This document shows, one piece after another, positions 584 to 64,000 of a stretch of 64,000 nucleotides of DNA. The stretch comes from Boswellia sacra. Its lineage: Eukaryota; Streptophyta; Magnoliopsida; Sapindales; Burseraceae. Position 1 is the first letter of the stretch. The number at the start of each line of letters is the position of its first letter. The position numbers and the translations under genes are program-made. Under the pieces are notes generated by a model. It saw nothing but the letters and a program-made list of their open reading frames with translations. It ran no database searches and was not told the origin of the DNA. The stretch is taken from the NCBI GenBank assembly GCA_013180625.2, contig SNVD02001164.1, forward strand, positions 80,864 to 144,863, given 5' to 3'.

Positions 584-985
584 TGATAGATCCAAAGTTC
601 ACCACACGCTTCACACATAAGTGATAACAGATTTTGGGAGGTTGACGGTAAAAGAATAGATTAGAGTTTGTTTTGTAGAAACAATTTGGAAGAAAATGTT
701 AATAGATTGGATAGGTAGCAGGATATTCAAGAGTCCTGCCAGCTTTCCCCGGAGACAAAAATCTCTCCAAAATTCACAAATAGATCATGTTCTCCTCTCT
801 CAATTGTTTCCCCCTTCTTATTCTCTAAGTAACTCCGCACATTTCCCTAGGAAAGATAACTAATTTTCACTACCCCAAGCATAACAGAAAAAATAAAGAG
901 ACATAAGGACAATTCCCAACTCTACCCTCACTCCTTCTTACTCTATTGGCGCCTAACATAGGTGAACCTTATTGAAGGCCTATCA
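584..985 (-). repeat. 3' LTR of the chromovirus
   Basis: A 402-bp direct repeat of 5458-5856 with terminal TGATAG/CTATCA. On the element's own strand this is the downstream LTR. It is preceded on the plus-strand left side by CTTTA (579-583), one half of the target duplication. Confidence 0.93.
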
Positions 986-5457: not shown

Positions 5458-5856
5458 TGATAGATCCAAACTTCATCACGCACGCTTCACAAATTAGTGA
5501 TAACAGATTTTGGGAGTTTGACGGTTAAAAAATAGATTGGAGTTTGTTTTGTAGAAACAATTTGGAAGAAAATGTTAATAGATTGGATAGGTAGCAGGAT
5601 ATTCGAGTCCTGCCAGCTCTCCCTAGAGACAGAAATCTTTCCAAAATTCACAAATAGATCATGTTCTCCTCTCTCCTTGTTTCCCCCTTCTTATTCTCTA
5701 AGTAATTCCACACATTTCCCTAGGAAAGATAACTAATTTTCACTACCCCAAGCATAACAGAAAAAAATAAACAAACATAAGGACAATTCCCAACTCCACC
5801 CTCACTCCTTACTCTGTTGGCACCTAACATAGGTGAACCTGATTGGAAGCCTATCA
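5458..5856 (-). repeat. 5' LTR of the chromovirus
   Basis: A 399-bp direct repeat of 584-985, bounded by TGATAG and CTATCA. The primer site adjoins its inner edge and CTTTA (5857-5861) its outer edge. Confidence 0.93.
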
Positions 5857-19736: not shown

Positions 19737-21742
19737 TTAGTTGACAACGTAGTCATGTAAACTAATGGAATCGAAACTCCCTCCCATGAATTCTCCTATA
19801 TCTTTATAACCCACCAAATGGGCCCGAACCTTAGAAACTGCATCATGTATGTGGCTTGCAATTACGCCAATTCTTTTGGAAATTTCTTTACTTAATAATG
19901 GACTTACTATTCCTATTTTAGTGCCCGTAATTTGAATCCCAATTGCGGCAGTAGGAAGCCTTAAAAATTGCATCATCTATGCGGCTTGCAATTACGCCAA
20001 TTCTTTTGGAAATTTCTTTACTTAATAATGGACTTACTATTCCTATTTTAGTGCTCGTAATTTGAATCCCAATTGCGGCAGTAGGAAGCCTTAAAAAAAA
20101 AAGATTATAAAATGAATAATTATAAGTTAAGTCAACATTTTACCATCAATCACAAGTTCATATACCTCATCAAATAGACCTTAATTGGTGATAACATGCT
20201 AACACATGACATCTTCAGTGCCATAGGGCCAGAACAAATAAGTGTGCTAGACTGGGAAGCATGATGTTCGTAAGTATTTCGCCATTATGTATTATCCCTA
20301 ATAACTAATTACTAATTAACCCCCATTATTATATACAGCTTAATTACCTCAGTCCCCTGTCTTTACTTGGCTATTACTCTAAATTCATTGACTCGTTGTA
20401 CTTATTTAACCACTGGGAGGCACCATTTTATTGTTTCTCATTTAACAATTATCTAATATATGTACACCTGCTGAAATGTTTGCACCGTCCTTGGCGTTCA
20501 AATAATAAGTCCAATTTAAATAACTCCCACCTATTACCTAAAGTTGTTATAGCATTTAACGATCTTTACATCACAAGCTACAGAATCACATAAAATTCGC
20601 CGCTTAGATTTATTGCAACAGTCCTATTGTGGCATCCATGGTGTACCATATACCCTATAACCAAAGAAACATCATTTGTACACTACTTGTGTGGCATTTT
20701 CCCTATTCTAGATTTTCATAACTTGCATTGCGTCATCATGTAGGGATAACCACAAACATGTAGCACCTTTTACGTTACCGTTTACTCATATTGTGGGTAA
20801 CTGGTGATATAATACATTAACTCGCCACTAGCAAGTATACGGTCTTTCCACCATATCTTTGCAATTTCTTACTGTGTCCTTATTTGAAAGTTAGATTTCG
20901 TTGCTCTACTTCTCGCCTGAGGGGCCATAAATTTTGCTGATATCCTTAGCCAGCGACATATATGCCTCCCTAACATTTTTAGCATGTTGTGTACAAATGG
21001 CGTTCAACTCCCCTTGGAACTCTAGTAATCTTTCTTCCAACCCCATATTGGCTTCACTATGTTTCCCACTCCTCTCTGCATTCCCATGTACATGATGTCC
21101 TCCACTCTTGACAATGTCCGCTGCACCCACACATTGTATGAAACAACTAGGTGGGAAAATTATGTCCATAAGGGAACCTCATTGTGGCTACCGACCGTGT
21201 ATCCCTACAGACAAAATACATGCCCAATAATTTTAATATAGACATGCTTCTTACCCCATTCATTAACATGCACCTACGACGAATGCCTACGGGAAAAATA
21301 CTATATAATTTTATCACTTATTTCAACACTTATGCATCCTTGACAACAGCAAGTGGGAAAATTTGTTTATATATATGACAATAAATTTGTCTTTTATTGT
21401 AAAACTCATTAACATACTTGTAGTTGGGTTAGACGAACTCCCACTGTCGGTCGGTGCTATACACAGAGCTTTTTACTCTTCTCTAACTTTTTCACTTCCA
21501 GCTTACCTCCGTCGATATTCCACAAATGCCTTTTTCGCTTCATTTTTGCATTTAAATGACTTGTGTTTAGCGTTCAGGTACCTATCCACTTGCTCCCTTG
21601 CCTCCTCCCAGGTGTCATATATACCAGTTTCCTTACCCTTGAAGACAATGTATGATTTCCCGTACCAACGTACATACGAGTTACTGAAATTTGTTAACTG
21701 AACGTATATCATTTGTAGCAACAACAATGGTAACCATAACAA
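19737..21742 (-). pseudogene. Gene remnant with RNase H1 N-terminal (viroplasmin-type) domain
   Basis: The minus-strand segment 21503-21680 reads YIVFKGKETGIYDTWEEAR, then QVDRYLNAKHKSFK and a final EAKKAFVEY. This is the signature of the RNase H1 N-terminal/viroplasmin fold, which binds RNA-DNA hybrid or dsRNA. Downstream pieces on the same strand are 20906-21169 (MGLEERLLEFQGELNAI, probably helical) and 19737-19976, which repeats at 19961-20090. The pieces are separated by stops and may be exons or a decayed gene. No RNase H catalytic domain is visible. Plants have stand-alone proteins with this domain, some within transposons; its position among MULE remnants suggests capture, which is inference. 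Confidence 0.5.
19831..20090. repeat. Two-copy tandem duplication, 130-bp unit
   Basis: Units 19831-19960 and 19961-20090 are in perfect 130-bp register and differ at only about half a dozen positions. The second unit ends in an A-run. On the minus strand each unit can encode LPTAAIGIQIT-x-TKIGIVSPLL. Because 130 is not a multiple of 3, the duplication shifts frame. Confidence 0.85.
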
Positions 21743-43987: not shown

Positions 43988-45374
43988 CCCTGCAAAGAAT
44001 GATGAAGAACGAAAATCATTTCCTGGATTGTGTTTCTTTTATAAGGATCATTCAAAAATATGGGTGAATGTGTTGGCTTCCATTAAAGGTTTTGAAATGA
44101 ATCAACAGAGAAGGCTGGTGGCTCATGGTTTGGGTTAGGGTTAGAATTAAACTCTATATTTCCATTGATGTAGGTAGGAAGGAAGAGAATTATGGGTTTA
44201 CGACTTTTATAAGGGGTCTTTTATTAGTGTTTACGAAATTTATAATGAATTAATAGTTTATGGTCATTTTGGTCATTTTACCAAATATAAATAATGATTT
44301 AGCTGTAAAAGCAATCAATGAAATACATAATATATGACTACATACATATCATTTACAAGCATTATAGATAATTGTACGAATTTCACACACTTTGTTACGT
44401 CTTCTGAAAATTTTAGTTTTGCACCTTTCGATAGAACAGTAACTTAGTTTACATTTTTTTTATTTTAGGTTAACAATTTTTACAAGTTGGTTTACGAGTT
44501 TCATTTGTTGTTTACGACTTTTACACTATATCATGAAGGGGCATTTTTGACAAATATGTACAGTTATTTCGGTCATTTTAATGACGAAACAAAATAGTGT
44601 ATTAACCACTTTTTATAAGTTATTTACTATTTTTACAAGAAAGTTAACTATTTTAATAGCCTCGTTTACATCTATTAGAAAATTTGGTTTTTATTTAACT
44701 ATCGCGAACAATATTGATATTTTCTACTTTTTATTTTCGATTTTCGACTTTTACAAGTTTATTTACGATTTTTTTTTGTTGTTTACAATTTTTACACGAA
44801 TAGGTTTATGGTTATTTTTAGAAAACTAAACAGTGATTTGCCTTACTAAAAGGTCAAATAGAATAGTAAATTAACAACTTCTTTTACCTTCTTTTCGACA
44901 TTTGCTACCTCTTTTATTACTTTTACATATTCATTTACAGTTATTAGAAATTTTGGATTTATCCCCCTGATGTAAATAGTAACATCGATTACGACTTTTT
45001 ATTTAAACTTATGATTTTTACGCGTTAGACAACGATGCTTGTTTGCGCATTACGATTTTTACACTATATAAAACTGGTCATTTTTACAAATTTGAACAGT
45101 ATTCTAGGTTTGAAATTTATTGAACAAAAAAGTAGTCTTTACGTCTTTTTATAAGTCATTTACAAATTTTACATATAAATTATCAGTTTTTACATACACA
45201 ATTACGAGTTTAAGATATTTTAGTGTTGTCCTCCTCTGTGTGAACTGAAATTTTGTTTTCCACTTTTGCTATGAGGTTTACAACTTTTATGCAAGGGCTT
45301 TTATTTTTTATTTGTTGTGTACAACTTTTACATGAAAATGATAATAGTTAAAATATTATAAATGGTTTGGCGAG
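43988..45374. other. AT-rich stretch with a recurring TTTACGA-TTTTACA motif
   Basis: After the pseudogene's upstream region (to about 44.2 kb), no gene is seen. From about 44.2 to 45.35 kb a degenerate motif like TTTACGACTTTTACA recurs more than twenty times at irregular spacing, for example near 44198, 44483, 44506, 44747, 44780, 45047 and 45290. No fixed period is evident. Confidence 0.5.
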
Positions 45375-47165
45375 AATGACCTAAATTACCCTCATCCCTT
45401 TAGCGATGAGTTCAGGAAGTTAGGTACGAGTCATTTAAACCATCCGGATCAAAATCCGACGTCTACTAGGACATACCAAATGAAAATAACTAATGTTGTT
45501 ATATAGTCCACTTAAATTGTTCATTTTATGCATACATTTCTATTTTTATCTTCATTAGGACATGTGAGGCGATTATTCAAGCATAGCAGTGGTATATTCA
45601 TACATAGAAAGAGGGAGGAGAATAAATTACATTTTTGTCATACATAGGGAAAGGGGAAAAGGATTAAAATAACTTGTTTTTCAACAATAAAACAAATTTG
45701 TACAAAATATACATTTGTTCACAATATAAATTCAAATATTAAATATAAATGGTGCATCGATTCGAGACCCAATAGATGATGAATTCCTCACCACCATATA
45801 TGACTCTATTCAATATCTATTAAGCCTCCATAAGTATATTTATACATTAAATCAATTATTCGAAGGGATGGTCCCTCACCACCAATGTGAGTCTACCACC
45901 ACTCCATAGCATCATTCAATAACACTTCTTATCATAATATATTCAAAGCATATTCATACTTTCAATTAATTAAAATCCAAACAAAGTCATAATTTAAGAT
46001 CATGATATTATAGCCTAGATTTGATAATTCTATCATAGCATTCTAACCTATTGCTCTTTTAGCATAATTCATATTAATTCATAAGAAATCATGGCATTTC
46101 TAGCCTAAGCATGGTTATGATGGCATATTCTAGCTGAAACATCGCATTTCTAGTCTAATTCAAGCAAACAAAGTTAATCAAAGCTATTCTTGCTCATTCC
46201 AAACATTCAAAGGGCAGTATGATAATTCTTATCTATTCTATACTATTTCTTAGCATACATCAAAACAAATATAAGTTCTTCCTAGCATGATTCTAATCAT
46301 GTGCTCCTAAACATGTTTCTAATCATCCGTTAAAAAAAAATCCTACACATGATTCTAATAAAGAAGGGATAGCAAACTGACCTCGACACATTTATCCATC
46401 TCGTAAAACAAATGAGGGTTAGAACAATTCACAATAACCCTAGCATTCTTCTAAACATCAAATTAAATTCTAAACATGCTTATTCTAAGCATAAACAAAC
46501 TTAATCATACTTAATTCTAAGCAAGGAAGGTAAATAAGAAAGGAGGAGGAAGAAGCGAGGACTACTCTCAAGACGTACCCATTCTGGGTTTAGAGCAATA
46601 GGATGCCTAAAAACTTTGAGCTAGAAAAGACTTCTCAAATTCTTGAGCATGTCTTCGAAAGAAAGAAGAGCAAATTGTTCAATATTCGATATGTCTTACA
46701 AAGTGAGGAGAGGGGGTGCTTATATAGAAGAGGAGTAAAGCTGAAAAAAGAAGAAAGAAACAAAAAAGGAAGGTTTCTATTGAAATTTTCGTAAAATACA
46801 TGACCAAGAGTCGCCCGACCATTGGTAGATTGACGACCGACCATCAAACAGACGAGCAGCTGTCTGATAGTCATCCTTTGTCTGTTTGATCATGCATAAC
46901 TTTTTAAGTTCAACTTCAATTTGTAATCTATAAATTTTTATGAAAACTAGACATCTTTAGCTTTGCAATGGTATATGACTCATCAACAGATTCCTTCTGA
47001 TTAATTTAAGTGAATTTTTGAAGTCACATGTTAGTTTTTAAGACCTTTTGGCTGATTCCTTTTCACCTTTCTTTTTTGGACTTTCAAGGGCACTATCATT
47101 TCCTTTGCTTAACGTTCATCATTATTTTATTATCGAGCCTAAAAAAGCTAGTGTCTATAGCATGC
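45375..47165 (-). repeat. LTR-like repeat, left arm of a 1.8-kb inverted repeat
   Basis: The reverse complement of this stretch aligns almost end to end with 47750-49530, through shared blocks such as CGTACCTAACTTCC, GAATAATCACCTCACATG-like sequence, TATATAAG and GATGTCTAGTTTT. Diverged but clear. On the minus strand a TATA box (46721-46726) and an ACCTAACTTCC end suggest an LTR of a Ty3/gypsy element, possibly Tat lineage. No internal coding domain is attached. Confidence 0.7.
46721..46726 (-). promoter_or_regulatory. TATA box of the left LTR-like copy
   Basis: The minus strand reads CTTCTATATAAGC, at the same place as TATAAATA in the right arm (48231). Conservation of position supports a U3 promoter. 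Confidence 0.5.
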
Positions 47166-47332
47166 CCCCTACTTTGGAGAGATTTGTGAGACACAAAGGT
47201 CGACAAAGTACTTCTTACCTCATCTTTCCTTCTTCCATCTCGACATCTTCATCTTCATCTCTATCCTCATCCCACCAGGCTTCTCATCATCTTTCTCTTA
47301 TTCTATCTCTTTCAAAGAGGTGTTCTTATTTG

Positions 47333-47563
47333 AGGGTCAAGTGCCCGTTAAAGAGTTGATGTGCCTATTCAAAGGCTAAGGAGCCCGTTCAAGGGCTGAT
47401 GTGCCCTTCTAAGGATACACATGCCCATCTAAGGGCTAATATGTCTATCCACGGGCCAAGGTGCCCTCCTAAGGGCTAATAAGCCACTTAAGGGCTAGCG
47501 TGCCCCTATAAGGGCTGATATGCCCATTCAAGGGCCAATGTGCCTTCTCAAGGGCTGGTAAGC
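47333..47563 (+). repeat. 20-bp minisatellite, about 11 units
   Basis: Consensus GCTGATGTGCCCTTCTAAGG repeats with an almost exact 20-bp period; units diverge by a few bases each. It sits in the spacer between the two inverted LTR-like arms. Confidence 0.85.
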
Positions 47564-47584
47564 ATCTTTATGATGCTTATGATA

Positions 47585-47755
47585 AAACACTCTTCAGTGC
47601 ACCTACTTCTTAGGGTTTTCAACATTCTTCAGTGCACCTACTTCTTATGGTTTGGTAATAATCTTCAGTGCGCCTATTCTAAGGGCTTTAAACACTCTTA
47701 AATGCACCTACTTCTTAGGGTATTCAATACTCTTCGATGCGCCTCTTATAGGCAC
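47585..47755 (+). repeat. Repeat of about 35 bp, about 5 units
   Basis: Units of the form CACTCTTCAGTGCACCTACT plus TCTTAGGGTTTTC follow each other. The same unit recurs at 49690-49835, on the far side of the right LTR-like arm. Confidence 0.8.
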
Positions 47756-49530
47756 TGAATTTTGAGACTCGATAAAGAAATGAAGATAAATGTCGTGAGG
47801 TACAAATTATCAAAATACCCTTGGAGGCCAAGAAGAGAAAGGTGAGATGGAATCGATGAAAGGTCTAAAAACTGACATATGACTGCAAAAAATCATAAAA
47901 ATTAATCCAAGAGGAATTTGATGATGAATCATATAACATTGCGAAGCTATGAATGTCTAGTTTTTATAAAAATTTACATATTGCAAAACGGAGTTGAATT
48001 CAAAAGTTGCGTGAGATCGAACAGGTAAAGGTCAGGAGGGACTACATTACAAGGTGACAAAACAAGGGGACTGAGGTGAAATAGCCGACCAACAGCCGAC
48101 TATCTGTCTGACAGTCGCCCGACTGTTAGCCCACAGCTACTCGGCTATTGGTGGTATAATTTTGAAAATTTGCATAAAAAACCTTCCTTTTTTAGATTCT
48201 TCTTCCTTTTTCAACTTCACCCCTCTTCTATATAAATAGCCCCTCCTTACTATGCAACACATATCGAATTTTGAACAATTCTCTCTTCTTTCTCTTGAAA
48301 ATACGCTCAAAAATTTGAGAAGTCTTTTCTAGTCTAAAGTTTTTCAGGTGTTCTATTGCTCTAAACTTGGAGATGGTACGTCTTGAGAGTAGAATTCTCT
48401 CCTCCCTCTTATGATTCTTCTTTATTTTATTCCTTAGAATTAAGCATGTTTAGATTGTTTAAAGCTTAGAATAAGCATGATTAGAATTTATTTTTATGCT
48501 TAAAAGTATGTTAGGGTTATTATGAGTTGTTCTAACCCTTGTTTGTCTTGCGAGATAGATAAGTGTGTCGAGCTAAGTTTGTTATCCCTTCTTTATTAGA
48601 ATCATGGTTAGGAATTTAATATCTTTGCGAATGCTTAGAAACATGCTTATAAGTACATGATTAGAATCATGCTAGGAGAACTTATATTCACTTTTATTTA
48701 TGCTAGGAAATAGCATAGAATAGGTAAGAATTATCATTTTGTCCTTGGATGTCTTATTTGAGCTAGAATAGCTATGATTGATTGAATTAGGCTAGAAATG
48801 CCATGTCTAGGCTAGAATATGCCATGATAATTATGATTATGCAAGAAATTTCATGAAGTAATATTGAATTATGCTAGGATACCGATTGCCATGATAGAAT
48901 TATCGAATCTAGGTTGAAGTGCCATGATACTAGATTATGGACTTGTTTGATTTATAATTTATTATTTATGAATCTATGAATGTTTGTACTATGGTAGAAG
49001 TATTACTGGATGATACCATGAAGTGGTGGTGGACTCACATTGATGGTGAGGGACCATCACTAAGAATGAATGACTTAATGTATGAATAGAGGTTCAATAG
49101 ACATTGAATGGACTCATATGGTGGTGAAGAATTCATCATCTATTGGGTCTCAAATTAACCATTTTTACTCAATATTTGAACTCATGATGAATAGATGAAT
49201 GTAATATTTTAATTGTTGAAAAACAAAATGATGTAATCCTCTTCCCTTTCTCTTATGTTTAAAGACAATGTAATATATTCTCCTCCCTTTTTCTATAGAT
49301 GTTTAAAATTGCCATTGATTGAATAATCACCTCACATGTCTAATAAAGATAAAAATGAAAATGTGTGCATAAAATGAACCACTTAAGTGGACTAAGTAAC
49401 AATACGAGCTATTCCAATTTAGTATTTCCTAAGTAAAGGTCAGATTTACATCCAAGAGGGTCAAATGACTCGTACCTAACTTCCCGAACCCATCTTTAAA
49501 ATGATGATGGTAGTTTAGGTCCCGAAATGA
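47750..49530 (+). repeat. LTR-like repeat, right arm of the 1.8-kb inverted repeat
   Basis: Plus-strand counterpart of 45375-47165. It carries TATAAATA at 48231 and ends with CGTACCTAACTTCCCGAACC near 49477. The following 49565-49590 reads GGGTGGCAACTCCATT, close to the GGTGGCGACTCC seen after LTRs of some plant Tat-type elements. The LTR assignment is inference from these marks. Confidence 0.65.
48231..48238 (+). promoter_or_regulatory. TATA box of the right LTR-like copy
   Basis: TATAAATA follows a pyrimidine-rich stretch and precedes CATATCGAATTTTGAAC, which is also conserved downstream of the TATA box in the left copy. Confidence 0.55.
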
Positions 49531-53217: not shown

Positions 53218-54746
53218 TGATGAACACTTAAATATGCATGTTTAATAAGAGTTTAGTTCATCATATTGCATTAATAGTGTCATTAAATTCCTCAACTTAA
53301 GCATATTTGTAGCATTTGCATCTTTGGAATTAATTCCTCTTAATTTTGGTTTTGTTACAGGTTCGGTAAAATGGGCATAACTCTCTATTTATAGATCAGA
53401 ATGGTGCAATTCTTAATGTTTTGGAAAGCTGATTTAATTGTCTACAAGATTGCATTTCACAAGCATCATCAAATTCGGGCTCTTAGTGGACCAAAATTGG
53501 GCTTGAAGTGAACCCATCTACAGTCTCAGCCCAGTCTGACCAGGCCTCAGTATTTGGACCGTATCTCTCAAAATACGTATCCAAATTGTGCAAATCAATA
53601 TGTTCTAGAAATATGAGAGAAATATCTACAACTTTCATGAAGACATGTGATTAAAATTCACAACATTTCGATGTCAAAATTGATGGTCAAAGTCGGTGCC
53701 TAATGATCCCAATTGTCAAAGATATTTACAACTAATATTTGACAATTATGCCCTTGTAATTTGACAAGTTTGCCCCTGGATGTATCTATAAATAGAGGTG
53801 CCTTGTGACCCATTAGGGCATCTTGGCCTTGGCTGGAACATTTTGGCTTTGGCTAGGATCTTGTATTGTGTTTTGTGTGTTTATGTTATTAATGAATTTC
53901 CTTTTTCTTGCATTTTATTTTCTTTCTATTATAATGTTCTTCTAATTTCTCTTTTGCTAAGGTGAAAGGGTGAAACCCTTGATATGAGAATAAGGATTCT
54001 CTAACCCTTAATATGTGCTTAATAATCTTAATCTTATAATGTTTATTCAATATGATTTATATTTAATTTCTTAATCAATCTTGACACCACTCGTAAAGTG
54101 GAGGTCTTGATCCATTGTCGACAATCCTTGGCACATCAAATGCTTGGATCCTTTCTAGATGATGTATGGTTCTTCCTTACCGACACGAATCTAGTTAGGA
54201 ACCTTGATTTGTTGTAGACATATGGTGATTGGCACATTGGATGCTTGAACCCATTTACAAGAAGTGGTATAAATATTGGTAATGAAACAAATATAATTCA
54301 TATAACTAAAATGGGTTAATTATCCTTATTTGAAATATCAAGGGCGGATCCCCTAACCTTAGCCTTCATTGTTATTGTGTTAATTCCTCTTGTATTTTAA
54401 TTATTCTATTGTTTATGAACTTTTTATTTTATTTACTATGGTAGGTTCTACCACCTTATGAAATTGTTCTTTAATTTACTATGGTTGGTTATACCACCTA
54501 TTTCCATGGATGGTTTTACCTCCTCTTGCTTTTTGTTTTATATTTGAATGGTCGGTAATACCACCTACCATCTTACATACTTGTTGATATTATCTTGTCA
54601 CCTCTTTGAATCATCCATATCATATTTGCTTTAGCTTATAATTTGTAACGCTAAAATCTCCTTCCTCGTGGATCGACCCCGGTCTCACCGGGTTTATTAC
54701 TTCGACACTCCTATACTTGGGAGACAATCCTTTTTCGGATGTGTCA
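53218..54746 (+). repeat. 5' LTR of the Athila element
   Basis: About 1.53 kb ending GGATGTGTCA. It carries a TATA box at 53786-53795. The inverse complement of 53433-54746 is present at 62687-64000, with roughly 96-97% identity in the part compared. Confidence 0.85.
53786..53795 (+). promoter_or_regulatory. TATA box of the Athila LTR
   Basis: CTATAAATAG, about 960 bases before the LTR end, in a suitable place for the U3 promoter. The inverted LTR has the same box near 63638-63647. Confidence 0.6.
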
Positions 54747-54752
54747 AGTTTT

Positions 54753-54770
54753 TGGCGCCGTTGCCGGGGA
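54753..54770 (+). other. Primer binding site, Athila type (tRNA-Asp)
   Basis: TGGCGCCGTTGCCGGGGA lies six bases after the LTR end. This is the characteristic primer site of Athila elements, usually matched to tRNA-Asp. Confidence 0.85.
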
Positions 54771-54881
54771 AGGTAAAAATTGGCGTGCAAAATTGTAAGT
54801 ATTCTCTTTTCTCATCTTAGATCTAAATTTTTTATTTTTTGTGTGTTCATCTTTTCCTCTCTTTTCTTCTCTCTTTCTTGC

Positions 54882-56317
54882 ATGAAAATTTGGTCACGAA
54901 CATCTAGTGGTAGACTTGTTAGAAAAACATCATCTTCCTTAGAAAACATGGCCGACAATCATGAGGAAATATTCACGGATGAAGGGGACAACCGTTCGCA
55001 ACAAAATGATCAAAACCAACGAAGAACCCTCAAAGACTACATGAATCCGGTAAGGACTAGTGCACCATCTTGTGTAGTTTCTCCTCCAGATTCAATCCAT
55101 TTCAATTTCAAACCAAGTTTTGTTCGACTTCTACCCACTTTTCATGGCCTTGACATGGAGAACCCATATTCGCACTTGAAACTCTTTGAAGAGGTATGTA
55201 GCTCCTACACTGACCCAAATTGTAGCATAAACACCATTAGATTAAAGCTTTTTCCTTTTTCTTAAAAGATAAAGCTAGAACATGGCTACAAAATTTGAGG
55301 TCGAATTCCATCAGTTCATGGGATGAGATGAAACAACAATTTTTTAAAAAAATTTTTCCTACCCATAGAACAAATTCTCTTAAAAGACAAATTTCTGATT
55401 TCTCTCAAAAACAAGGGGAAACCCTTTACCAATGTTGGGATAGGTATAAGGAACTACTTAATACCTGTCCTCACCATGGTTTTGAAACTTGGAGAATAGT
55501 TGCACACTTCTATGAAGGGTTAACACCTCAAGATAGGCAACTAGTGGAATTAATGTGTAATGGAGAATTTAAAGAAAAAGATCCTGAGGAAGCACTTGAC
55601 TTCCTAGATTCCTTGGCAGAAAAGGCACAAAATTGGGACACTGCTGGCACCTATGAGGTACCAAGCAAGGCCCAAACCTCGACATCCAATAGAGGTATTT
55701 ACAACCTTAGGGAAGACCATGACCTTCAAGCCAAATTTGCATCCCTAGCTAGAAAAGTCGAGGCTTTAGAGATGAAAAAGAGTGGTCAATTGAAATCTAT
55801 TCAAGAAAATGTCTGTAACATTTGTGATGACAATGACCATTCTACTGATGATTGCCCAACTTTGCCTGCCTTTAGGGAATGTCTCCATGAAGAAGCCAAT
55901 GCCTTGAATACTTTCAAAAGGCCAAATCACAATCCATATTCACAAACCTACAATCCTGGTTGGAGAAATCATCCAAATTTTAGTTGGAAAAATGACAATC
56001 ATGCACAATCTTCACAAGTCCCTTTTCAAACACGACAAAATTTTCAAAATTCTCATGATCATGCATATGCTCCTCTTCCTAGGAATGACTTTGAAGAAAC
56101 ATTGCATTCATTCATTACAAAGCAAGAGACTTTCAATAGTCAAACTGCTCAAACACTAGCAAATTTGTCAGAAACTCTTGCAAAATTTACATTTACATTT
56201 AGCATGCAAGAGAAGGGAAAATTTCCTTCTCAAACATTGCAAAACCCCAAAGATCAATCTAACTCAAATGCAGGAGTTCAAATAACCATTATTTTGATCA
56301 AGCTAAGTCAGTCATGA
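54882..56317 (+). pseudogene. gag: Athila gag, frame broken
   Basis: Likely start at 54882 (MKIWSRTSS) or 54948 (MADNHEE). The first part runs to a TAA at 55262-55264. The retrotransposon gag domain then continues in another frame from ARTWLQNLR (near 55270) through LYQCWDRYKELLNTCPHHG. A CCHC zinc knuckle (CNICDDNDHSTDDC) lies at 55813-55854, followed by a Gln/Asn-rich tail. The first break is a one-base change in a T-rich run near 55258-55263. The gag frame ends at 56317; upstream of the pol ATG the pol frame reads NNHYFDQAKSV, so a second one-base frame change lies near 56275. No other stop interrupts the frame. Confidence 0.85.
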
Positions 56318-59300
56318 CCCTTCGCAATGGTAAGGTTGTTGAAAAACATATTCCTAACCCTTGTGAGAAAGAAGAAGAATCGATCTCTAAAGGGCAGAAA
56401 GATGTTGCCAAACCAACACCGAGCGAAGAGGAAACCAAATCCTCATCTGTGCCTCCATTTCCTCAAGCATTAGCCACACAAAAGAAGCCAACTCACAATT
56501 CTGAAATCTTTGAAATTTTCAAACAGGTAAAGGTCAACATTCCCTTGCTTGATGTGATCAAACAGGTACCTTCTTATGCAAAATTTTTGAAAGACTTGTG
56601 CACTGTGAAAAGAAAACTGAATGTGAAAAAGAAGGCCTTTCTAGCCGAGCAAGTAAGTGTTATTCTTCAAAATAATAATATAGTGAAATATAAGGATCCA
56701 GGTTGTCCTACAATTTCATGTGTTATTGGAGACCATAAAATTGAACAAGCTTTACTTGATCTTGGTGCTAGTGTGAATTTGCTTCCATACTCGGTTTTTC
56801 AAAAACTCAATCTAGGTGAGTTAAAACCAACTTCTGTGACACTTTTGCTTGCTGATAGATCAATTAAAGTACCAAGAGGAATAGTAGAAGATGTGTTAGT
56901 TCAAGTCGATAAATTCATTTACCCAGTGGATTTTATCATCTTGGACACACAACCAGTGGAAGTAAGCAATTCAATTCCTGTTATTTTAGGGCGTCCATTT
57001 CTAGCTACTTCTAATGCTTTGATTAATTGCAGGAATGGAGTCATGAAGCTATCATTTGGGAACATGACATTAGAACTTAATGTTTTTAATATGTGCAAAC
57101 AACCAAATGAAGAAGAAGATGAAGTTGATGAAGCCAATGTAATTGAATCTATTGTGGAAGATCACATCCAAAAAGGGAGTTCTTCTGACCCTTTGGAAAC
57201 TTCTCTAGTGAATTCATTAGAATCAAGCATGGAACTAGAGTCTGATCTTTCTGATATATGCTCTTTATTGGATTGTGCACAGGTGATGGAAAAAGGCTCA
57301 AAATCAAGATTTGAAGAATTGGGGCAGATGAATGAAAGCAAGGAAGATGAAGCTCCCAAGCTAGAATTGAAGCCCTTACCTGAAGGACTGAAATATGCAT
57401 ATCTTGGGGAGAATCAGACATATCCGGTGGTAATTTCTTCATCCCTCACATGCGAGCAACAAGGTAAGTTGATAGAAGTGCTTAAAAGGCATAAAAATGC
57501 AATTGGGTGGACTTTAAAAGATATAAAAGGCATTAACCCTTTAATTTGCACACATAGAATACATTTAGAGGAAAATGCCAAAACATCTCAACAACCTCAA
57601 AGGAGATTAAATCCACACATGAAAGAGGTCATTAGGGCTGAAGTTCTCAAACTACTTGATGTGGGAATTATCTATCCTATTTCTGATAGTAAGTGGGTAA
57701 GCCCTACACAAGTAGTACCTAAGAAATCTGGCATTACAGTAGTTAAAAATGAAAAGGGTGAATTATTGCCAACTCGTGTCTCATCTAGTTGGAGGATGTG
57801 CATTGATTATAGAAAATTAAATGCTGTCACTAGAAAAGACCATTTTCCCTTACCTTTCCTTGACCAAATTCTTGAAAGAGTAGCAGGACACCCTTACTAC
57901 TGCTTTCTTGATGGATACTCAGGCTACTATCAATTCCCTATTGCACTTGAAGACCAAGAAAAGACCACATTCACGTGCCCCTTTGGCACTTTTGCATTTA
58001 GGAGAATGCCTTTTGGACTTTGTAATGCCCCAGCCACTTTTCAAAGATGCATGTTAAGCATTTTCAGTGACATGGTTGAGCATTGTTTAGAAGTTTTCAT
58101 GGATGATTTAACTGTCTTTGGAAACTCTTTTGATAATTGTCTTGAAAATTTAGAAAAAGTCCTAAAAAGGTGTGTAGAAAAAGGTCTTATTTTGAATTGG
58201 GAAAAATGTCATTATATGGTCACTTCAGGAATTGTTTTAGGTCATGTGGTGTCTTTTAAAGGAATTGAAGTGGATAAAGCAAAAGTGGAATTAATTTCCC
58301 ATTTACCTCCACCAAAAACAGTTAAAGAGGTCCGTTCATTCTCAGGGCATGCTGGATTTTATAGGAGGTTCATAAGAAATTTCAGTGCTATATCTAAACC
58401 TCTTTGTAACCTCTTAATAAAAGATACTTCCTTTGAATGGACTCAAGAATGTCAAATTGCCTTTGATACATTAATTGGGCTTTTAACAACTGCTCCAATT
58501 ATGCAATCTCCTGATTGGTCCTTGCCTTTTGAATTGATGTGTGATGCAAGTGATTATGCCGTTGGTGCTGTCTTAGGACAAAGAAAAGAAGGTAAGCCTT
58601 ATGTAATATACTATGCAAGTAGGACTTTAAATGATGCACAAATGAATTACACAACAACTGAGAAAGAACTACTTGCAGTAGTATTTGCATTGGACAAATT
58701 TCGATCTTATTTAATTGGCTCTCCAACAATTGTTTACACTGACCATGCAGCTGTGAGATATTTAATGACTAAACAGGATGCAAAACCTAGATTGATACGG
58801 TGGATCTTATTGCTCCAAGAATTCAACATCACAATAAAGGATAAGAAAGGAGCCGAAAATGTCGTTGCTGATCATCTTTCAAGACTAACGACAGAGACAT
58901 TAATTGAAACTTCACCTATCAATGATTCTTTTCCTGATGAATTTTTATTTTCTGTTGCTACTGTACCTTGGTTTGCTAACATTGTAAATTTTCTTGCGAC
59001 AGGGAAAATGCCACCTCATTGGAATGCTCAAGACAAAAGAAAATTTTTAACCGAGGTGAAAAAATTTTACTGGGATGACTCATATCTGTTCAAATATTGT
59101 CCAGACCAAATAATGAGAAGATGCATACCCGACAATGAGGTAAGTAGTGTCATTAACTTTTGTCATTCTGAAGCATGTGGAGGACATTTTTCATCTAGAA
59201 AAACAGCTGCTAAGATCTTACAATGTGGATTTTATTGGCCCACCTTATTTAAAGATGCACATGCATTTTGCAAAACGTGTGAAAATTGTCAAAAATTGGG

Positions 59301-60257
59301 ATCCATTTCAAAAAGAAACATGATGCCTTTGAATCCCATTCTTGTTGTTGAAATCTTTGATTGTTGGGGTATTGATTTTATGGGACCCTTTCCACCGTCA
59401 TTTGGTTTTGTGTATATCCTTGTTGCAGTAGACTATGTTTCAAAATGGGTCGAGGCAACTCCATGTCGAAACAATGACCACAAAACAGTTGTCAAATTCT
59501 TGAAAGAGAATATCTTGAGTAGATTTGGAATTCCTCGAGCCATTATTAGTGATGGGGGTACGCATTTTTGTAATAAACATTTGAAACCTTAATGAAGAAA
59601 TATGGAATAACCCATAAAATTTCTACACCTTATCACCCACAAACAAGTGGACAAGTTGAATTAGCTAATAGGGAGATAAAACAGATCTTAGAAAAAACGG
59701 TTAACCCAAATCGTAAAGATTGGTCTTTAAGACTTAGTGATGCACTTTGGGCTTACCGAAATGCTTTTAAAACATCATTAGGAATGTCTCCTTATAGACT
59801 AGTTTATGGAAAACCTTGTCACTTGCCTGTGGAACTTGAGCATAAAGCTTATTGGGCTATTAAAACATTCAACACAAATTTGAATGATGCTTGCAAGTTA
59901 CGTAAACTCCAACTGAGTGAACTTGAAGAAATCAGGAATGAGGCTTATGAAAATTCTAAAATCTACAAAGAAAAAATGAAGGTTTTTCATGACAAATCCA
60001 TTGTTAGAAAATCTTTTGAACCTTCACAAAAAGTTCTTTTGTATGATTCAAGATTGCATTTGTTTCCTGGTAAACTTCGGTCTCGTTGGACTGGGCCTTT
60101 CATTGTTAAAAATGTTTTCCCTCATGGAGCAGTTGAAATTGAGAACCAAAAGAATGGTAATGTGTTTAAAGTTAATGGACAACGGTTAAAACCATTCTTT
60201 GAAAATTTTGACCAAAACGAAGAGTCCATTGCTTTAATCGATCCTTTTAAGGATTGA
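56314..60257 (+). pseudogene. pol: Athila pol: protease, RT, RNase H, integrase; one frame break
   Basis: The first part is 1092 codons. Protease Asp is at residue 149 in LLDLGASVNLLP (DLGA is usual in Athila). The RT active site FMDD lies at about 595-598. The first RNase H Asp is at 744 (MCDASDYAVG). The integrase HHCC finger runs HSEACGGHF to CENCQKLG, and catalytic Asp residues are at 1021 (GIDFMGP) and 1080 (SDGGTHF). The frame stops at 59592 and continues from an overlapping ATG at 59590-59592, with the integrase Glu in GQVELANRE (residue 23) and the C-terminal domain to 60257. The break is one base short in a T run near 59581. All catalytic residues are present. No chromodomain. Confidence 0.92.
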
Positions 60258-60478
60258 TTTTTCCCGGTCAAGTGGCGGATACGGTACTCCGTGACATTTA
60301 AAGTCGGTTTTTCAGTTCCCTAAAAACTGTTGCTCACTTTGCATCCATTTTCTTTTCTTCTCTCTCATTTTCTTCACATGGATACCATTCTCTCAAAATT
60401 GCACAAACATTTCCCTCTCTTCCTCAAAATGATTTGCTTAAAATTTATAAAGCTCGTGCAGAAAGACTAAGGTTGTTG

Positions 60479-60925
60479 ATGCGTAAGGGTATTCCTGCTG
60501 ATTTAAGATGGTTAATTGAAGCCAAGGTTCTGTCTCTTTGTGAGTTTTTAGATAATCTTGTTTCCCATATGCCAGGTTTGGGAAAAAACTCTTATGCCAA
60601 AAAGCGAAGAGCAAAAAGGTTACAAGTTTGTCACAAATGTGCAAGATGGACTTGTAACCAGCGTTGCCGCTCCTTGGGATATTTGTCTAACAATCGAGAG
60701 AATAAGCTACAGTTCATCAAGGATGGACTGAGTAAGGAGTCCTTGGATGATATCCGAGTGACTCTTGAGATGCATTCTTGTGGACTTGTGCAGCGTGAAA
60801 TTTTTAATTTGTGGACACAATTCCGAGATGAGCAGGAACGCTATAGTCTTGGAAATCTGACTCAAAACGACCCCGTTTGCCAGTTTATAAGAAAACTAGA
60901 TGGGAAGCATATCCCTAACTCATAG
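60479..60925 (+). CDS. Small basic Cys-rich protein, viral nucleic-acid-binding (carlavirus NABP)-like
   Basis: From the first in-frame ATG the protein has 148 residues. The frame stays open upstream to a TAA at 60299-60301 without any ATG, so a spliced or non-AUG start is possible (a TTTTTCAG acceptor-like site is at 60308-60315). Order of parts: helical N-terminus RKGIPADLRWLIEAK (2-16), a glycine turn and basic stretch SYAKKRRAKRL (38-48), four cysteines at 51, 54, 59 and 63 (CX2CX4CX3C), then NKLQFIKDGLSKE (75-87) and an acidic C-terminal part with Cys101 and Cys134. The RKGIP motif, basic stretch, cysteine cluster and following QFI-x-x-G match, in order, the Cys-rich Viral_NABP family of carlaviruses, which bind RNA and can suppress silencing. 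The C-terminal half is not in that family as I know it. The ORF is complete, just after pol. Confidence 0.6.
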   Translation: MRKGIPADLRWLIEAKVLSLCEFLDNLVSHMPGLGKNSYAKKRRAKRLQVCHKCARWTCNQRCRSLGYLSNNRENKLQFIKDGLSKESLDDIRVTLEMHSCGLVQREIFNLWTQFRDEQERYSLGNLTQNDPVCQFIRKLDGKHIPNS

Positions 60926-61239
60926 AAGGTGTTTAAGCCATTTCTGGACGTAAAACCAGAGGAAGATGTGAGCCACAGTCACAACTATCTGTACATATGC
61001 ATGCGTGCCATCATTTTTGAATTTTAATACCTCATAGCTGTCATTTTTGAATTTGTATCTTTTGTTTGACTTATGTGTCTTATTTCATCATCTTTTGAAT
61101 TTTTATGCATTATTGTCAAATTTTTCGACAAACAACCGAGCTACCTAGATAGATATCATCATTAGCATACCTTTTTGCACTCCATAAATACTACATCTCT
61201 TGTTCTCTTCTTCACACATAGTTAGAGAGCTGCATAGAC
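60926..61239 (+). other. Spacer before LOG with promoter-like TATA
   Basis: No ORF. A TATA-like CATAAATA lies at 61183-61190, 50 bases before the LOG start, followed by a CT-rich leader, so the LOG gene may have brought or gained its own promoter. This is inference. Confidence 0.35.
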
Positions 61240-61890
61240 ATGGAGGGAACTTCAAAACGTCAAATCCAAAGGATATGTGTATTCTGTGGATCCCAACCGG
61301 GTAAAAGTGAGGAGTTTATAGAAGTAGCAAATTACCTTGGTAGACTACTAGCTGAAAGAAAGATTCATGTGGTTTATGGGGGAGGTAGCCTTGGGTTAAT
61401 GGGTTGCGTATCAACAGCTGCACATGTAGGAGGTAGTCAAGTGTTAGGAGTTATTCCTAAAGCTTTGGCTGTAAAAAGCATTGTTGGAAAAACGGTTGGG
61501 AAGGAGTTACAGGTCTCCTCTATGCATGAACGCATGGCACATATGCTCATCAATTCAGATGCCTTTATTGCTTTATCAGGTGGCTTTGGCACTCTTGAAG
61601 AAATTTTTCAAATTGCCTCTTGGGCCCAACTGAATCTCCATCAAAAACCCATAGGTTTGTTGAATGTTAACAATTTCTTTGATCCTTTAATAAGTTTTGT
61701 TGATGCAGCTGTAGAACAAAATTTTATCCCATATTGGGCGAGACAGATCCTTGTTTCTGCCACTTCTGCTGGTGAGTTACTTGACAAATTACAAGAAGTT
61801 GAGTATGAACCTGACCAAGCTAGTACTCAAATTAATTGGGCAGGAGGGCAAAACAAAAAGTGCAAATTGGATCTGAATCTCCGTTTGTAA
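61240..61890 (+). CDS. LOG: Intronless LONELY GUY (LOG) cytokinin riboside 5'-monophosphate phosphoribohydrolase
   Basis: The ORF is 216 residues from ATG to TAA, the usual LOG length. LOG enzymes remove ribose phosphate from cytokinin nucleotides in the cytosol or nucleus, giving free active cytokinin. Visible marks: RICVFCGS (11-18), VVYGGGSLGLMG (44-55), MHER with Arg98 (95-98), SGGFGTLEE (113-121) with Glu121, and WAQL and KPIGLLN (128-142). The signature is normally PGG-x-GT-x-x-E, so Pro113 is Ser here, and Lys after Arg98 is Met. The catalytic Arg and Glu remain. The C-terminus LDLNLRL also fits an EAR-type LxLxL pattern, though such tails occur in some LOGs. Angiosperm LOG genes normally have several introns; none is here, so this is a retrocopy. 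It lies between pol and the Athila 3' region. Activity is unproven. Confidence 0.93.
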   Translation: MEGTSKRQIQRICVFCGSQPGKSEEFIEVANYLGRLLAERKIHVVYGGGSLGLMGCVSTAAHVGGSQVLGVIPKALAVKSIVGKTVGKELQVSSMHERMAHMLINSDAFIALSGGFGTLEEIFQIASWAQLNLHQKPIGLLNVNNFFDPLISFVDAAVEQNFIPYWARQILVSATSAGELLDKLQEVEYEPDQASTQINWAGGQNKKCKLDLNLRL

Positions 61891-62686
61891 TTTTTTTTGT
61901 CTTTTATTTTATTTTATTTTTAGCATGTTATTTTATGAGTCTTTCAGGTCATCTCTCTTTAATAACAGAAGCTTCAGGTAATGTCTCCTATACTTTATCT
62001 CTCTACATTTAAACATTGAGGACAATGTTTCATTTGGTTGGGGGGAAGGATAGTAGACATAAGTGTGTCTTAAAATTTTATTTTTTCTTGCGAAAAAAAA
62101 AAGCGAGTTAGTAATTAAATTCAGAGTGCGGTGTAAGGAGTTCAAATCCTCTTGAGACGCATTCTGGGTCAGGAATGGCAGAGTATGGAGGGCCAGTTTG
62201 AACTCTTGAAACCCATTCTAACCAATTTGTAATTTTATTTTGATCTTATGAACTCATTTTCGCTAACTTGATATTATTTAGACTTGATTTTTGAATTTTA
62301 TAACAAGGAGGTCTTATTCATTTCACTTTGAATTATTCAAATCTATGAACTCTCACAACCTTATCATTTAAATAAAAAAAAATTGTGTGCTTATGTACTC
62401 ATTAGGCAAGTATTCATGAACCTTTCTTCACACACACACACATACCTTGATGCATGATTGTGGGTGGCGAAATGAAATATTGTAATATTTGAGTTCTTTG
62501 TTTTGTTTAGGATAACAACACAAAGGAAGGAGAAAGTTAAAAAAAAAAGTGAAAAAAAAGAAAAAAAAAAGAGAAAGCAAATGTGGATACGTTTGGTCTC
62601 GTAGCCTCCTTAATTCGATAATTAAGCTCAGAGGGGTGCCTTAAACACCTAATACCCTAAGACCCAAACTGGTTTGGGAGCTATTT
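61891..62686 (+). other. Athila 3' untranslated region
   Basis: T-rich then A-rich, no ORF. It includes the conserved Athila block at 62013-62049, a purine-rich run at 62519-62578, and ends CCAAACTGGTTTGGGAGCTA before the inverted LTR. Its presence downstream of LOG places LOG inside the element. Confidence 0.7.
62013..62049 (+). promoter_or_regulatory. Conserved Athila 3' motif with G-rich tract
   Basis: ACATTGAGGACAATGTTTC followed by TTGGTTGGGGGGAAGG. The CATTGAGGACAATG palindrome-like core followed by GGGGGGA is a well-known feature of Athila 3' regions; its function (secondary plus-strand primer or RNA signal) is not established. Confidence 0.65.
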
Positions 62687-64000
62687 TGACACATCCGAAA
62701 AAGGATGGTCTCCCAAGTATAGGAGTGTCGAAGTAATAAAACCCGGTGAGACCGGGGTCAATCCACGAGGAAGGGAATTTAAGCGTTACAAATTATAAGC
62801 TAAAAAAATGTGATATGGATGATTCAAAGAGGTGACATGATAATATCAACAAGTATGTAAGATGGTAGGCGGTATTACCGACCATTCAAATATAAAACAA
62901 AAAGCAGGAGGAGGTAAAACCATCCATGGAAATAGGTGGTATAACCAACCATAGTAGATTAAAGAACAATTTCATAAGGTGGTAGAACCTACCATAGTAA
63001 ATAAAATAAAAAGTTCATAAATAATAGAATAATTAAAATACAAGAGGAATTAACACAATAACAATGAAGGCTAAGGTTAGGGGATCCGCCCTTCATATTT
63101 CAAATAAGGATAATTAACCCATTTTAGTTATATGAATTATATTTGTTTCATTACCAATATTATACCACTTCTTGTAAATGGGTTCAAGCATCCAATGTGC
63201 CAATCATCATATGTCTACAACAAATCAAGGTTCCTAACTAGATTCGTGTCGGTAAGGAAGAACCATACATCATCTAGAAAGGATCCAAGCATTTGATGTG
63301 CCAAGATTGTCGACAATGGATCAAGACCTCCACTTTACGAGTGGTGTCAAAATTGATTAAGAAATTAAATATAAATCATATTGAATAAACATTATAAGAT
63401 TAAGATTATTAAGCACATATTAAGGTTAGAGAATCCTTATTCTCATATCAAGGGTTTCACCCTTTCACCTTAGCAAAAGAGAAATTAGAAGAACATTATA
63501 ATAGAAAGAAAATAAAATGCAAGAAAAAGGAAATTCATTAAAAACATAAACACACAAAACACAATACAAGATCCTAGCCAAAGCCAAAATGTTCCAGCCA
63601 AGGCCAAGATGCCCTAATGGGTCACAAGGCACCTCTATTTATAGATACATCCAAGGGCAAACTTGTCAAATTAAAAGGGCATAATTGTCAAATATTAGTT
63701 GTAAATATCTTTGACAATTGGGATCATTAGGCACCGACTTTGACCATCAATTTTGACATCAAAATGTTGTGAATTTTAATCACATGTCTTCATGAAAGTT
63801 GTAGATATTTTTCTCAGCTTTCTAGAACATATTGATTTGCACAATTTGGATACGTATTTTGAGATATACGGTCAAAATACTGAGGCCTGGTCAGACTGGG
63901 CCGAGACTGTAGATGGGTTCACTTCAAGCCCAATTTTGGTCCACTAAGAGCACGAATTTGATGATTCTTGTGAAATGCAATCTTGTAGACAATTGAATCA
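62687..64000 (-). repeat. Oppositely oriented Athila LTR, truncated by the window end
   Basis: Starts TGACACATCC, the exact inverse of the 5' LTR end, and matches the inverse of 54746 down to about 53433. No primer site adjoins its left edge, so it is the 3' LTR of a minus-strand element, or a solo LTR. Differences from 53218-54746 are about 14 in the first 430 bases compared. Confidence 0.9.

What the first reader, a model, noticed from the sequence alone, without database searches (positions are those of the whole stretch)
60258..62049. Two-gene cargo module between pol and the Athila 3' region
The NABP-like ORF and LOG stand next to each other in sense orientation, in the slot usually used for env-like genes. 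One candidate suppresses silencing, the other modifies hormone state. Together they look like a host-manipulation module, and I know of no described retrotransposon with this pair.
Basis: inference. Interest (0 to 1): 0.9.

Follow-up and report, generated by a model that had tools for sequence, protein, structure and literature searches.

The report
Retrotransposon carrying cytokinin and virus-like genes
A plant jumping gene carries, behind its own copying genes, a gene of the cytokinin-activating LOG family that shares with its relatives an extra tail predicted to dock on the plant's TOPLESS repressor, next to a zinc-finger gene related to nucleic-acid-binding proteins of plant RNA viruses, and the pair would likely help the element by steering the host cell.

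Summary
Both ORFs are real and lie in sense behind pol of an Athila-type LTR element. NABP ORF 60434-60925 passes Pfam cut-offs for Viral_NABP and Carla_C4; LOG ORF 61240-61890 is uninterrupted (216 aa). In this copy gag and pol are split and NABP's usual start codon is out of frame, so LOG is the only complete gene. The two were probably not acquired together: a relative (L001) has NABP but no LOG, and LOG sits in about 0.9 kb that L001 lacks. NABP has 462 relatives (named ones are plants). LOG proteins of this type form one clade (100/99) apart from the host LOG1/3-type and LOG8 proteins sampled. New here: they end in a basic patch plus LxLxL (EAR-type) motif, in 95 of 102 full-length relatives and in the window copy, against 0 of 120 host LOG1/3-type proteins. 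Best reading: NABP likely protects element RNA from silencing; LOG likely activates cytokinin and docks on TOPLESS. Neither was tested. A LOG (YgdH) domain in Citrus and Populus Gypsy elements is already in print; ten searches of an open-access library found no report of NABP in a retrotransposon, of the pair or of the tail. Evidence that the pair recurs elsewhere is thin.

The parts
53430..54746 (+). 5' LTR, 3' part (true start lies upstream, not fixed)
   Evidence: 97.5% identical to the reverse complement of 62686-64000; ends just before the primer binding site
54753..54769 (+). primer binding site TGGCGCCGTTGCCGGGG
   Evidence: sequence; assignment to Athila/Tat-type elements is recalled
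54780..56317 (+). gag, split into two frames
   Evidence: ORFs 54780-55265 and 55295-56317; Retrotrans_gag 50.2 bits on the second
56314..60257 (+). pol: protease, RT, RNase H, integrase; split by a stop at 59590-59592 in the integrase core
   Evidence: protease hit just under its cut-off (23.8 of 24.3 bits); no chromodomain hit in the C-terminal piece
60260..60297 (+). conserved noncoding block before NABP
   Evidence: 36 of 40 columns identical to L001 1666-1704
60378..60925 (+). NABP: flexivirus-type nucleic-acid-binding zinc-finger gene; open frame 60434-60925, homologous ATG 60378 out of frame
   Evidence: Pfam, 462 relatives, alignment A1, dN/dS 0.174 against L001
60926..60994 (+). conserved noncoding block after NABP; the same three hairpins are predicted in window and L001
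   Evidence: 60 of 69 columns identical, against 60 of 101 fourfold sites in NABP and integrase; folds
60999..61887 (+). DNA absent from L001 that holds LOG (right edge uncertain, up to about 61972)
   Evidence: alignment breaks at 60998 and resumes firmly at 61973
61240..61890 (+). LOG-type gene, one uninterrupted ORF of 216 aa
61855..61887 (+). codons of the C-terminal basic patch plus LxLxL motif (KKCKLDLNLRL)
61973..62049 (+). conserved 3' stretch with CATTGAGGACAATG and a G run (polypurine-tract-like)
   Evidence: aligned to L001 2534-2613, 75.6%
62687..64000 (-). reverse-strand LTR of a second copy of the family; no primer binding site beside it, so a 3' LTR or solo LTR
   Evidence: sequence

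Best explanation
The two ORFs are accessory genes of an Athila-type plant LTR retrotransposon, a zinc-finger gene related to flexivirus nucleic-acid-binding proteins and a LOG gene likely added later, and the first would shield element RNA from silencing while the LOG protein likely makes active cytokinin and is predicted to dock on the TOPLESS co-repressor through its LxLxL tail. Shown: gene order, family membership, one LOG clade among the proteins sampled, conserved active-site positions and tail, low dN/dS of NABP in one comparison. Inferred: that a host LOG mRNA was copied into an ancestral element by template switching during reverse transcription; that the captured enzyme is still active in intact relatives; that the basic patch takes it to the nucleus; that cytokinin plus TOPLESS recruitment keeps the expressing cell dividing and its silencing or defence programme low, so that new copies reach the germ line. 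How LOG is translated (own promoter or spliced RNA) is open.
For: Pfam hits for both genes. The pol-NABP order recurs in L001 and in a Rhamnella gene model that fuses integrase to NABP (P0034). LOG is joined to pol of this type in a Xanthoceras gene model (P0121); NABP P0003 and LOG P0125 both list a contig of 8723 bases. LOG lies in DNA that L001 lacks. 29 LOGs of this type form one clade, 100/99, 100/100 with the tail cut off. LxLxL within the last 9 residues in 98 of 120 listed relatives and 95 of 102 of length 214-222; basic patch in 96 of 102; 0 and 0 of 120 host LOG1/3-type proteins; shuffled tails give a mean of 7.2, at most 14, of 102. The leucines at -1, -3 and -5 are kept in 100, 97 and 101 of 102, while no residue at -11 to -25 reaches 70 of 102. 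Arg98 in 97 and Glu121 in 98 of 102 (both in 93); this Glu is the residue that differs between PDB chains 5zbj and 5zbk. NABP dN/dS 0.174 between window and L001. Fold search: 21 of the best 23 viral matches have names, 19 of them labelled nucleic-acid-binding, RNA-binding or RNA silencing suppressor, all of plant viruses that I know as flexiviruses, though none has E <= 0.001. LxLxL EAR motifs bind TOPLESS (PMC10942257, passages); viral proteins of the NABP type suppress RNA silencing, and one acts as a transcription factor that causes hyperplasia (PMC12172455, abstract and introduction).
Against: No function, transcript or binding was tested. In this copy gag, pol and the NABP start are damaged, and the LOG motif PGGxGT reads SGGFGT; but Pro113 is also replaced in 9 of 102 relatives and in 6 of 120 host proteins, so the change need not kill the enzyme. 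Nine of 102 full-length relatives lack Arg98 or Glu121, and none of 120 host proteins does, so some element copies are decayed or less constrained. Recurrence of the pair outside the window rests on one contig length; a second shared length (2128) is within chance, since 15 of 120 shifted lists gave two or more matches. LOG relatives come largely from few genomes (47 of 120 Reevesia) and were not each shown to lie in an element. The host comparison covers LOG1/3-type proteins and LOG8 only; a host LOG subfamily with such a tail cannot be excluded. Without DNA of other LOG copies no dN/dS for LOG could be made. Seven of 102 full-length relatives lack LxLxL.
Confidence: 0.5

Rival explanations
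1. LOG is kept only as an enzyme: the element gains from free cytokinin (cell division, delayed senescence), and the C-terminal tail merely serves nuclear import, stability or oligomer packing, with no TOPLESS contact.
For: Active-site residues Arg98 and Glu121 are both kept in 93 of 102 full-length relatives.
Against: The tail keeps leucines at -1, -3 and -5 in 97 or more of 102 and a basic patch, while the linker before it varies, which fits a peptide docking motif better than packing.
Confidence: 0.25
2. LOG is now a non-enzymatic TOPLESS decoy or recruiter: the tail is the useful part and the enzyme fold only its carrier.
For: Nine of 102 relatives lack Arg98 or Glu121 while 0 of 120 host proteins do; the tail leucines are as uniform as the active site.
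Against: 93 of 102 keep both residues, so activity seems selected in most.
Confidence: 0.12
3. LOG is a passenger: a processed host gene inserted by chance into one element family and carried along without use.
For: The window copy lies in a decayed element.
Against: One clade, 102 of 120 listed relatives of normal length (214-222 aa), and a shared tail in Populus, Reevesia, Diplodiscus and Melia; a passenger would decay.
Confidence: 0.08
4. NABP is an RNA-packaging or RNA-export factor of the element (acting on the conserved blocks on either side of it) and not a silencing suppressor.
For: Noncoding blocks beside NABP are more conserved than fourfold sites (96 of 109 columns against 60 of 101), and the same three hairpins are predicted behind NABP in both sequences.
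Against: Fold z-scores are modest (-1.17 and -1.41 after NABP, -0.45 and -0.22 before it); the two sequences' minimum-energy folds before NABP are not the same; only two sequences were available.
Confidence: 0.35

Closest known systems
Gypsy elements of Citrus and Populus with a YgdH (LOG-type) domain (Alvarado-Marchena et al. 2022, PMC9289625, section on the domain screen read; citing Steinbauerova et al. 2011, not held)
   Same: LOG-type domain in plant Gypsy elements; Populus proteins appear in my LOG clade
   Different: The main text holds no NABP or carlavirus term; the section read mentions no EAR-like tail, single origin or insertion site
Phalaenopsis Gypsy elements with an AlkB-type RNA demethylase (PMC9289625, abstract and passages)
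   Same: A plant Gypsy element with an added ORF of a kind also known from flexiviruses; activity shown in vitro there
   Different: Ogre-like giants of 25 kb, another enzyme, no hormone gene
Nucleic-acid-binding cysteine-rich proteins of carlaviruses and allied flexiviruses (Pfam Viral_NABP, Carla_C4)
   Same: Basic stretch plus four-Cys motif; Pfam cut-offs passed
   Different: Encoded in an LTR element; the Pfam match covers residues 16-101 of 163 at most, and the conserved C-terminal part is shared only with the plant relatives seen
Plant LOG1/LOG3/LOG8 cytokinin-activating enzymes
   Same: Whole enzyme domain and active-site positions
   Different: 47-48% identity to four host LOG1/3-type proteins; separate clade; none of 120 host LOG1/3-type proteins has the basic LxLxL tail
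EAR-motif repressors such as RABBIT EARS (PMC10942257, passages) and LsAP2 (PMC8408249, passages)
   Same: EAR motif (LxLxL type in RABBIT EARS; C-terminal in LsAP2)
   Different: Those are transcription regulators with shown TOPLESS binding; this is an enzyme in a mobile element, binding untested

Membership tests
LOG (cytokinin riboside 5'-monophosphate phosphoribohydrolase) | Lysine_decarbox/LOG domain over its full profile | tested here: met
   125.9 bits, profile 1-131 of 131; 212 bits to 2a33
LOG (cytokinin riboside 5'-monophosphate phosphoribohydrolase) | Motif PGGxGTxxE (name recalled) | tested here: inconclusive
   Window reads SGGFGTLEE; the rest of the motif, Arg98 and Glu121 kept; Pro113 also replaced in 6 of 120 host proteins
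LOG (cytokinin riboside 5'-monophosphate phosphoribohydrolase) | Releases free cytokinin from the nucleotide | not testable with these tools
   No assay
Viral_NABP / Carla_C4 | Profile score above curated cut-off | tested here: met
   31.4 and 26.7 bits against 23 and 20.9
Viral_NABP / Carla_C4 | Basic stretch followed by a Cys-rich zinc-finger motif | tested here: met
   KKRRAK, then C66, C69, C74 invariant and C78 nearly so in 22 sequences
Viral_NABP / Carla_C4 | Same fold as the viral proteins | tested here: inconclusive
   Model pLDDT 76.8; best BFVD matches are flexivirus proteins but E >= 0.036 and TM mostly 0.15-0.35; no PDB match of note
EAR-motif (TOPLESS-binding) proteins | LxLxL peptide | tested here: met
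   At the very C-terminus in 95 of 102 full-length relatives and in the window copy; exposure not tested
EAR-motif (TOPLESS-binding) proteins | Binds TOPLESS/TPR | not testable with these tools
   No binding assay
Athila lineage of Ty3/gypsy | pol order protease-RT-RNase H-integrase, no chromodomain hit, sense ORF(s) behind pol | tested here: met
Athila lineage of Ty3/gypsy | RT groups with Athila reference elements | not tested
   No reference RT set used; the Athila label rests on anatomy and recall
Athila lineage of Ty3/gypsy | ATHILA ORF-1 (PF03078) env-like domain behind pol | tested here: not met
   No such hit in any of the six ORFs scanned; that many Athila elements lack it is recalled, so this is not taken as exclusion

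The most novel reading that the evidence does not exclude
A lineage of plant LTR retrotransposons has built a virus-style host-control kit: a zinc-finger silencing suppressor shared with plant RNA viruses, plus a rebuilt LOG enzyme that carries a nuclear signal and a TOPLESS-recruiting EAR tail, so that one transposon protein both raises cytokinin and recruits the plant's main co-repressor. It would be the first mobile element that I know of to act on hormone state and chromatin repression with a single captured enzyme.
Probability: 0.3. Interest if true: 0.92.

Novelty: new variant of a known kind. Interest (0 to 1): 0.72.

Why it matters
Extra ORFs of plant LTR elements mostly lack known domains. 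Here are two with recognisable biochemistry and relatives in several plant orders, each testable at the bench: a hormone enzyme with a possible repressor-docking tail, and a relative of viral nucleic-acid-binding proteins. If the tail binds TOPLESS, a retrotransposon would be shown to use the plant's central co-repressor, and some annotated 'LOGL10' genes of Populus would turn out to be transposon genes. It also hints at gene exchange between flexiviruses and LTR elements, as the AlkB case does.

Tried and rejected
Viral contigs: three protein or alignment scans and two DNA patterns of the conserved blocks found no relative. Genome contigs: one scan with the NABP alignment found one locus, L001, in a bacterial MAG record. 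Rfam on 60200-62700: only a SAM riboswitch match far below its cut-off, 19.4 against 44.4 bits, on the other strand inside LOG: rejected as chance. NABP structure from 22 sequences was too poor (pLDDT 50.3) and not used; 101 sequences gave 76.8. Considered and rejected: that the two genes arrived together (L001 has NABP alone); that LOG is a host gene between elements (it lies between NABP and the element's 3' stretch); that contig length 2128 proves linkage (within chance). No other copy of NABP or LOG in the window at E <= 1e-3. Literature: ten searches (listings seen) gave no title or abstract start that reports NABP in a retrotransposon, the pair, or an EAR-like tail on LOG; most listed papers were not opened, most subscription papers are not held, and Steinbauerova 2011 is not held.
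Full report
What is there. The window holds one LTR retrotransposon on the + strand from its 5' LTR (ending at 54746) and primer binding site (54753) through gag, pol and two further ORFs. pol carries RT, RNase H and integrase hits above their cut-offs, a protease hit just below its cut-off (23.8 of 24.3 bits) and no chromodomain hit. Behind pol lie ORF 60434-60925, which passes the Pfam cut-offs of Viral_NABP and Carla_C4, and ORF 61240-61890, a complete LOG-type protein. The Athila label rests on anatomy and recall; no RT tree was made. At 62687 a reverse-strand LTR starts, 97.5% identical to the element's 5' LTR over the part in the window. It has no primer binding site beside it, so it is a 3' or solo LTR of another copy of the same family; the first element's own 3' LTR was not found in the window.

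State of this copy. gag lies in two frames, pol is cut by a stop in the integrase core, and the ATG at 60378 that matches the NABP start of L001 is out of frame with the NABP ORF. Unbroken NABP copies exist in relatives. LOG is the only complete gene here, with Pro113 of PGGxGT replaced by Ser.

NABP is a wide family. 462 of 480 candidates scored E <= 0.01; the 120 best are listed, and by eye every listed row bears the Carla_C4 accession; named hosts are Xanthoceras, Rhamnella, Populus, Acer and Orobanche, and most rows have no name. In 22 aligned members three cysteines of the zinc finger are invariant and the fourth nearly so. L001, a 3330-base contig filed in a Candidatus Nomurabacteria MAG (that it is plant contamination is my inference), reads pol end, NABP, conserved noncoding block, 3' purine stretch, and has no LOG. 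Window and L001 NABP differ with dN/dS 0.174 (dS 1.09, 163 codons); two pieces of pol give 0.087 (dS 1.52) and 0.071 (dS 2.35), so dS is near saturation and the ratios are rough. A Rhamnella gene model fuses integrase to NABP (P0034). A model of P0003 (pLDDT 76.8, pTM 0.48) found no viral structure at E <= 0.001; of the top 23 of 43 weak matches 21 are named, 19 of them as nucleic-acid-binding, RNA-binding or RNA silencing suppressor proteins and two as '15kDa protein' and 'HP', all from viruses that I know as flexiviruses. PDB gave 3 weak matches, none of note.

LOG sits behind NABP in extra DNA. The alignment with L001 runs to window 60998 and resumes firmly at 61973; LOG lies between. A T-rich 26-base match at 61888 is too weak to fix the right edge. 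That LOG was gained here, and not lost from L001, is inferred; one relative cannot prove the direction. The LOG search gave 5337 proteins; of the 120 listed, 47 are from Reevesia, 9 Diplodiscus, 5 Populus, 3 Xanthoceras, 1 Melia, 55 unnamed. Forty-seven separate 90% clusters from one Reevesia species point to transposon amplification (inference). In Xanthoceras P0121 a piece of pol of this type lies between two LOG pieces of one gene model. P0003 (NABP) and P0125 (LOG) both list an 8723-base contig; of 59 NABP and 30 LOG contigs of 1300-20000 bases two lengths coincide, and shifted lists gave two or more coincidences in 15 of 120 shifts, so the count alone is not significant; the long contig is the better evidence.

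One clade. 29 LOGs of this type (28 chosen from the 120, plus the window) against 11 host LOG1/3-type proteins (chosen from 120), Arabidopsis LOG8 and two bacterial proteins form one side of a branch with 100/99 support, and 100/100 with the rows cut at residue 185-188 (the LOG8 segment whole) and the bacterial rows left out. The first tree warns of long branches meeting the bacterial outgroup. Other host LOG subfamilies were not sampled, so the donor is unknown.

The tail. LxLxL lies within the last 9 residues in 98 of 120 listed relatives, and in 95 of 102 of length 214-222; three or more K/R in the eight residues before the last six in 96 of 102. The window copy ends KKCKLDLNLRL. By source, full-length only: unnamed 47 of 49, Diplodiscus 8 of 9, Reevesia 34 of 38, Populus 5 of 5, Melia 1 of 1; the 3 Xanthoceras models are longer fusions without it. 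None of 120 host LOG1/3-type proteins has either feature; shuffling the last 14 residues gives a mean of 7.2 and a maximum of 14 of 102. Leucine stands at -1, -3 and -5 in 100, 97 and 101 of 102, and Lys at -10 in 99, while no residue at -11 to -25 reaches 70 of 102. LxLxL is the EAR motif that binds TOPLESS (PMC10942257, passages; for EAR motifs at large PMC8408249, passages). For this protein the binding is a prediction.

Activity. In alignment A2 (24 of this type, 4 host) Glu120, Glu121 and the GG-GT residues are invariant and Arg98 nearly so. In the wider set of 102 full-length relatives Arg98 is kept in 97, Glu121 in 98 and both in 93; in 120 host proteins both are always kept. So constraint is strong but looser than in host genes. 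Pro113 is replaced in 9 of 102 relatives (Ser in 3) and in 6 of 120 host proteins. The chains 5zbj and 5zbk differ, in the part shown, at the Glu that aligns with Glu121, which suggests a designed mutant; that this Glu is catalytic is recalled.

Noncoding blocks. Before and behind NABP lie blocks with 36 of 40 and 60 of 69 columns identical to L001, while fourfold sites agree in 60 of 101. Folded alone, window and L001 give the same three hairpins behind NABP, with z -1.17 and -1.41; the block before NABP gives -0.45 and -0.22 and no common fold. One stem has a change on both sides (CTGG/CCAG against CTAG/CTAG). Two sequences cannot prove a structure.

How it likely works. Shown: order, families, conservation. 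Inferred: reverse transcription with template switching brought a host LOG message into an element that already had NABP. NABP binds element RNA and blunts silencing, as viral proteins of this type do (PMC12172455, abstract and two sections; p12 of chrysanthemum virus B is described there as a weak suppressor and a transcription factor that induces hyperplasia). LOG raises active cytokinin and its tail recruits TOPLESS in the nucleus. Together they would hold the cell in a dividing, permissive state.

Compared with what is known. PMC9289625 (abstract, passages and its section on the domain screen read) reports a YgdH (LOG-type) domain in Gypsy consensuses of two Citrus species and, unfiltered, of Populus trichocarpa, and cites Steinbauerova et al. 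2011, which is not held. Its main text has no NABP or carlavirus term; its supplement was not seen. PMC7264820 (passages) and PMC11728184 (passages) describe other extra ORFs. PMC12596083 (passages) did not bear on this. I therefore call it a new variant of a known kind.

Noticed in passing
window 584-985 and 5458-5856, with RT-like frames on the minus strand at 1863-3585: A second LTR-type element: direct repeats 91.9% alike around a minus-strand RT-like stretch.
   Followed up: no
window 45378-49521: Large imperfect fold-back: about 1.4 kb arms in inverted order, 76.7% alike.
   Followed up: no
window 60260-60297 and 60926-60994: Noncoding blocks on both sides of NABP more conserved than fourfold sites; the second folds into the same three hairpins in window and L001.
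   Followed up: partly
L001 1641-1661: A pyrimidine-rich tract ending in TGCAG stands just before the conserved 5' block in L001 and looks like a 3' splice site; the window copy lacks it.
   Followed up: no
window 61183-61240: CATAAATAC about 50 bases before the LOG start, followed by a pyrimidine-rich stretch: resembles a plant core promoter or a splice acceptor.
   Followed up: no
L001 1-3330 (DAIEQH010000041.1): A plant-type retrotransposon contig lies in a bacterial (Nomurabacteria) MAG record, probably contamination.
   Followed up: no
P0170, P0191, P0218 (Populus, named LOGL10): Annotated cytokinin genes of Populus carry the element-type tail; P0170 and P0191 fall in the element clade, P0218 was not in the tree. 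Likely transposon genes.
   Followed up: partly
window 44457-45350 and 19829-20097: Short tandem arrays: roughly 270-base units at 44457-45350 and a pair of 130-base-spaced copies at 19829-20097.
   Followed up: no
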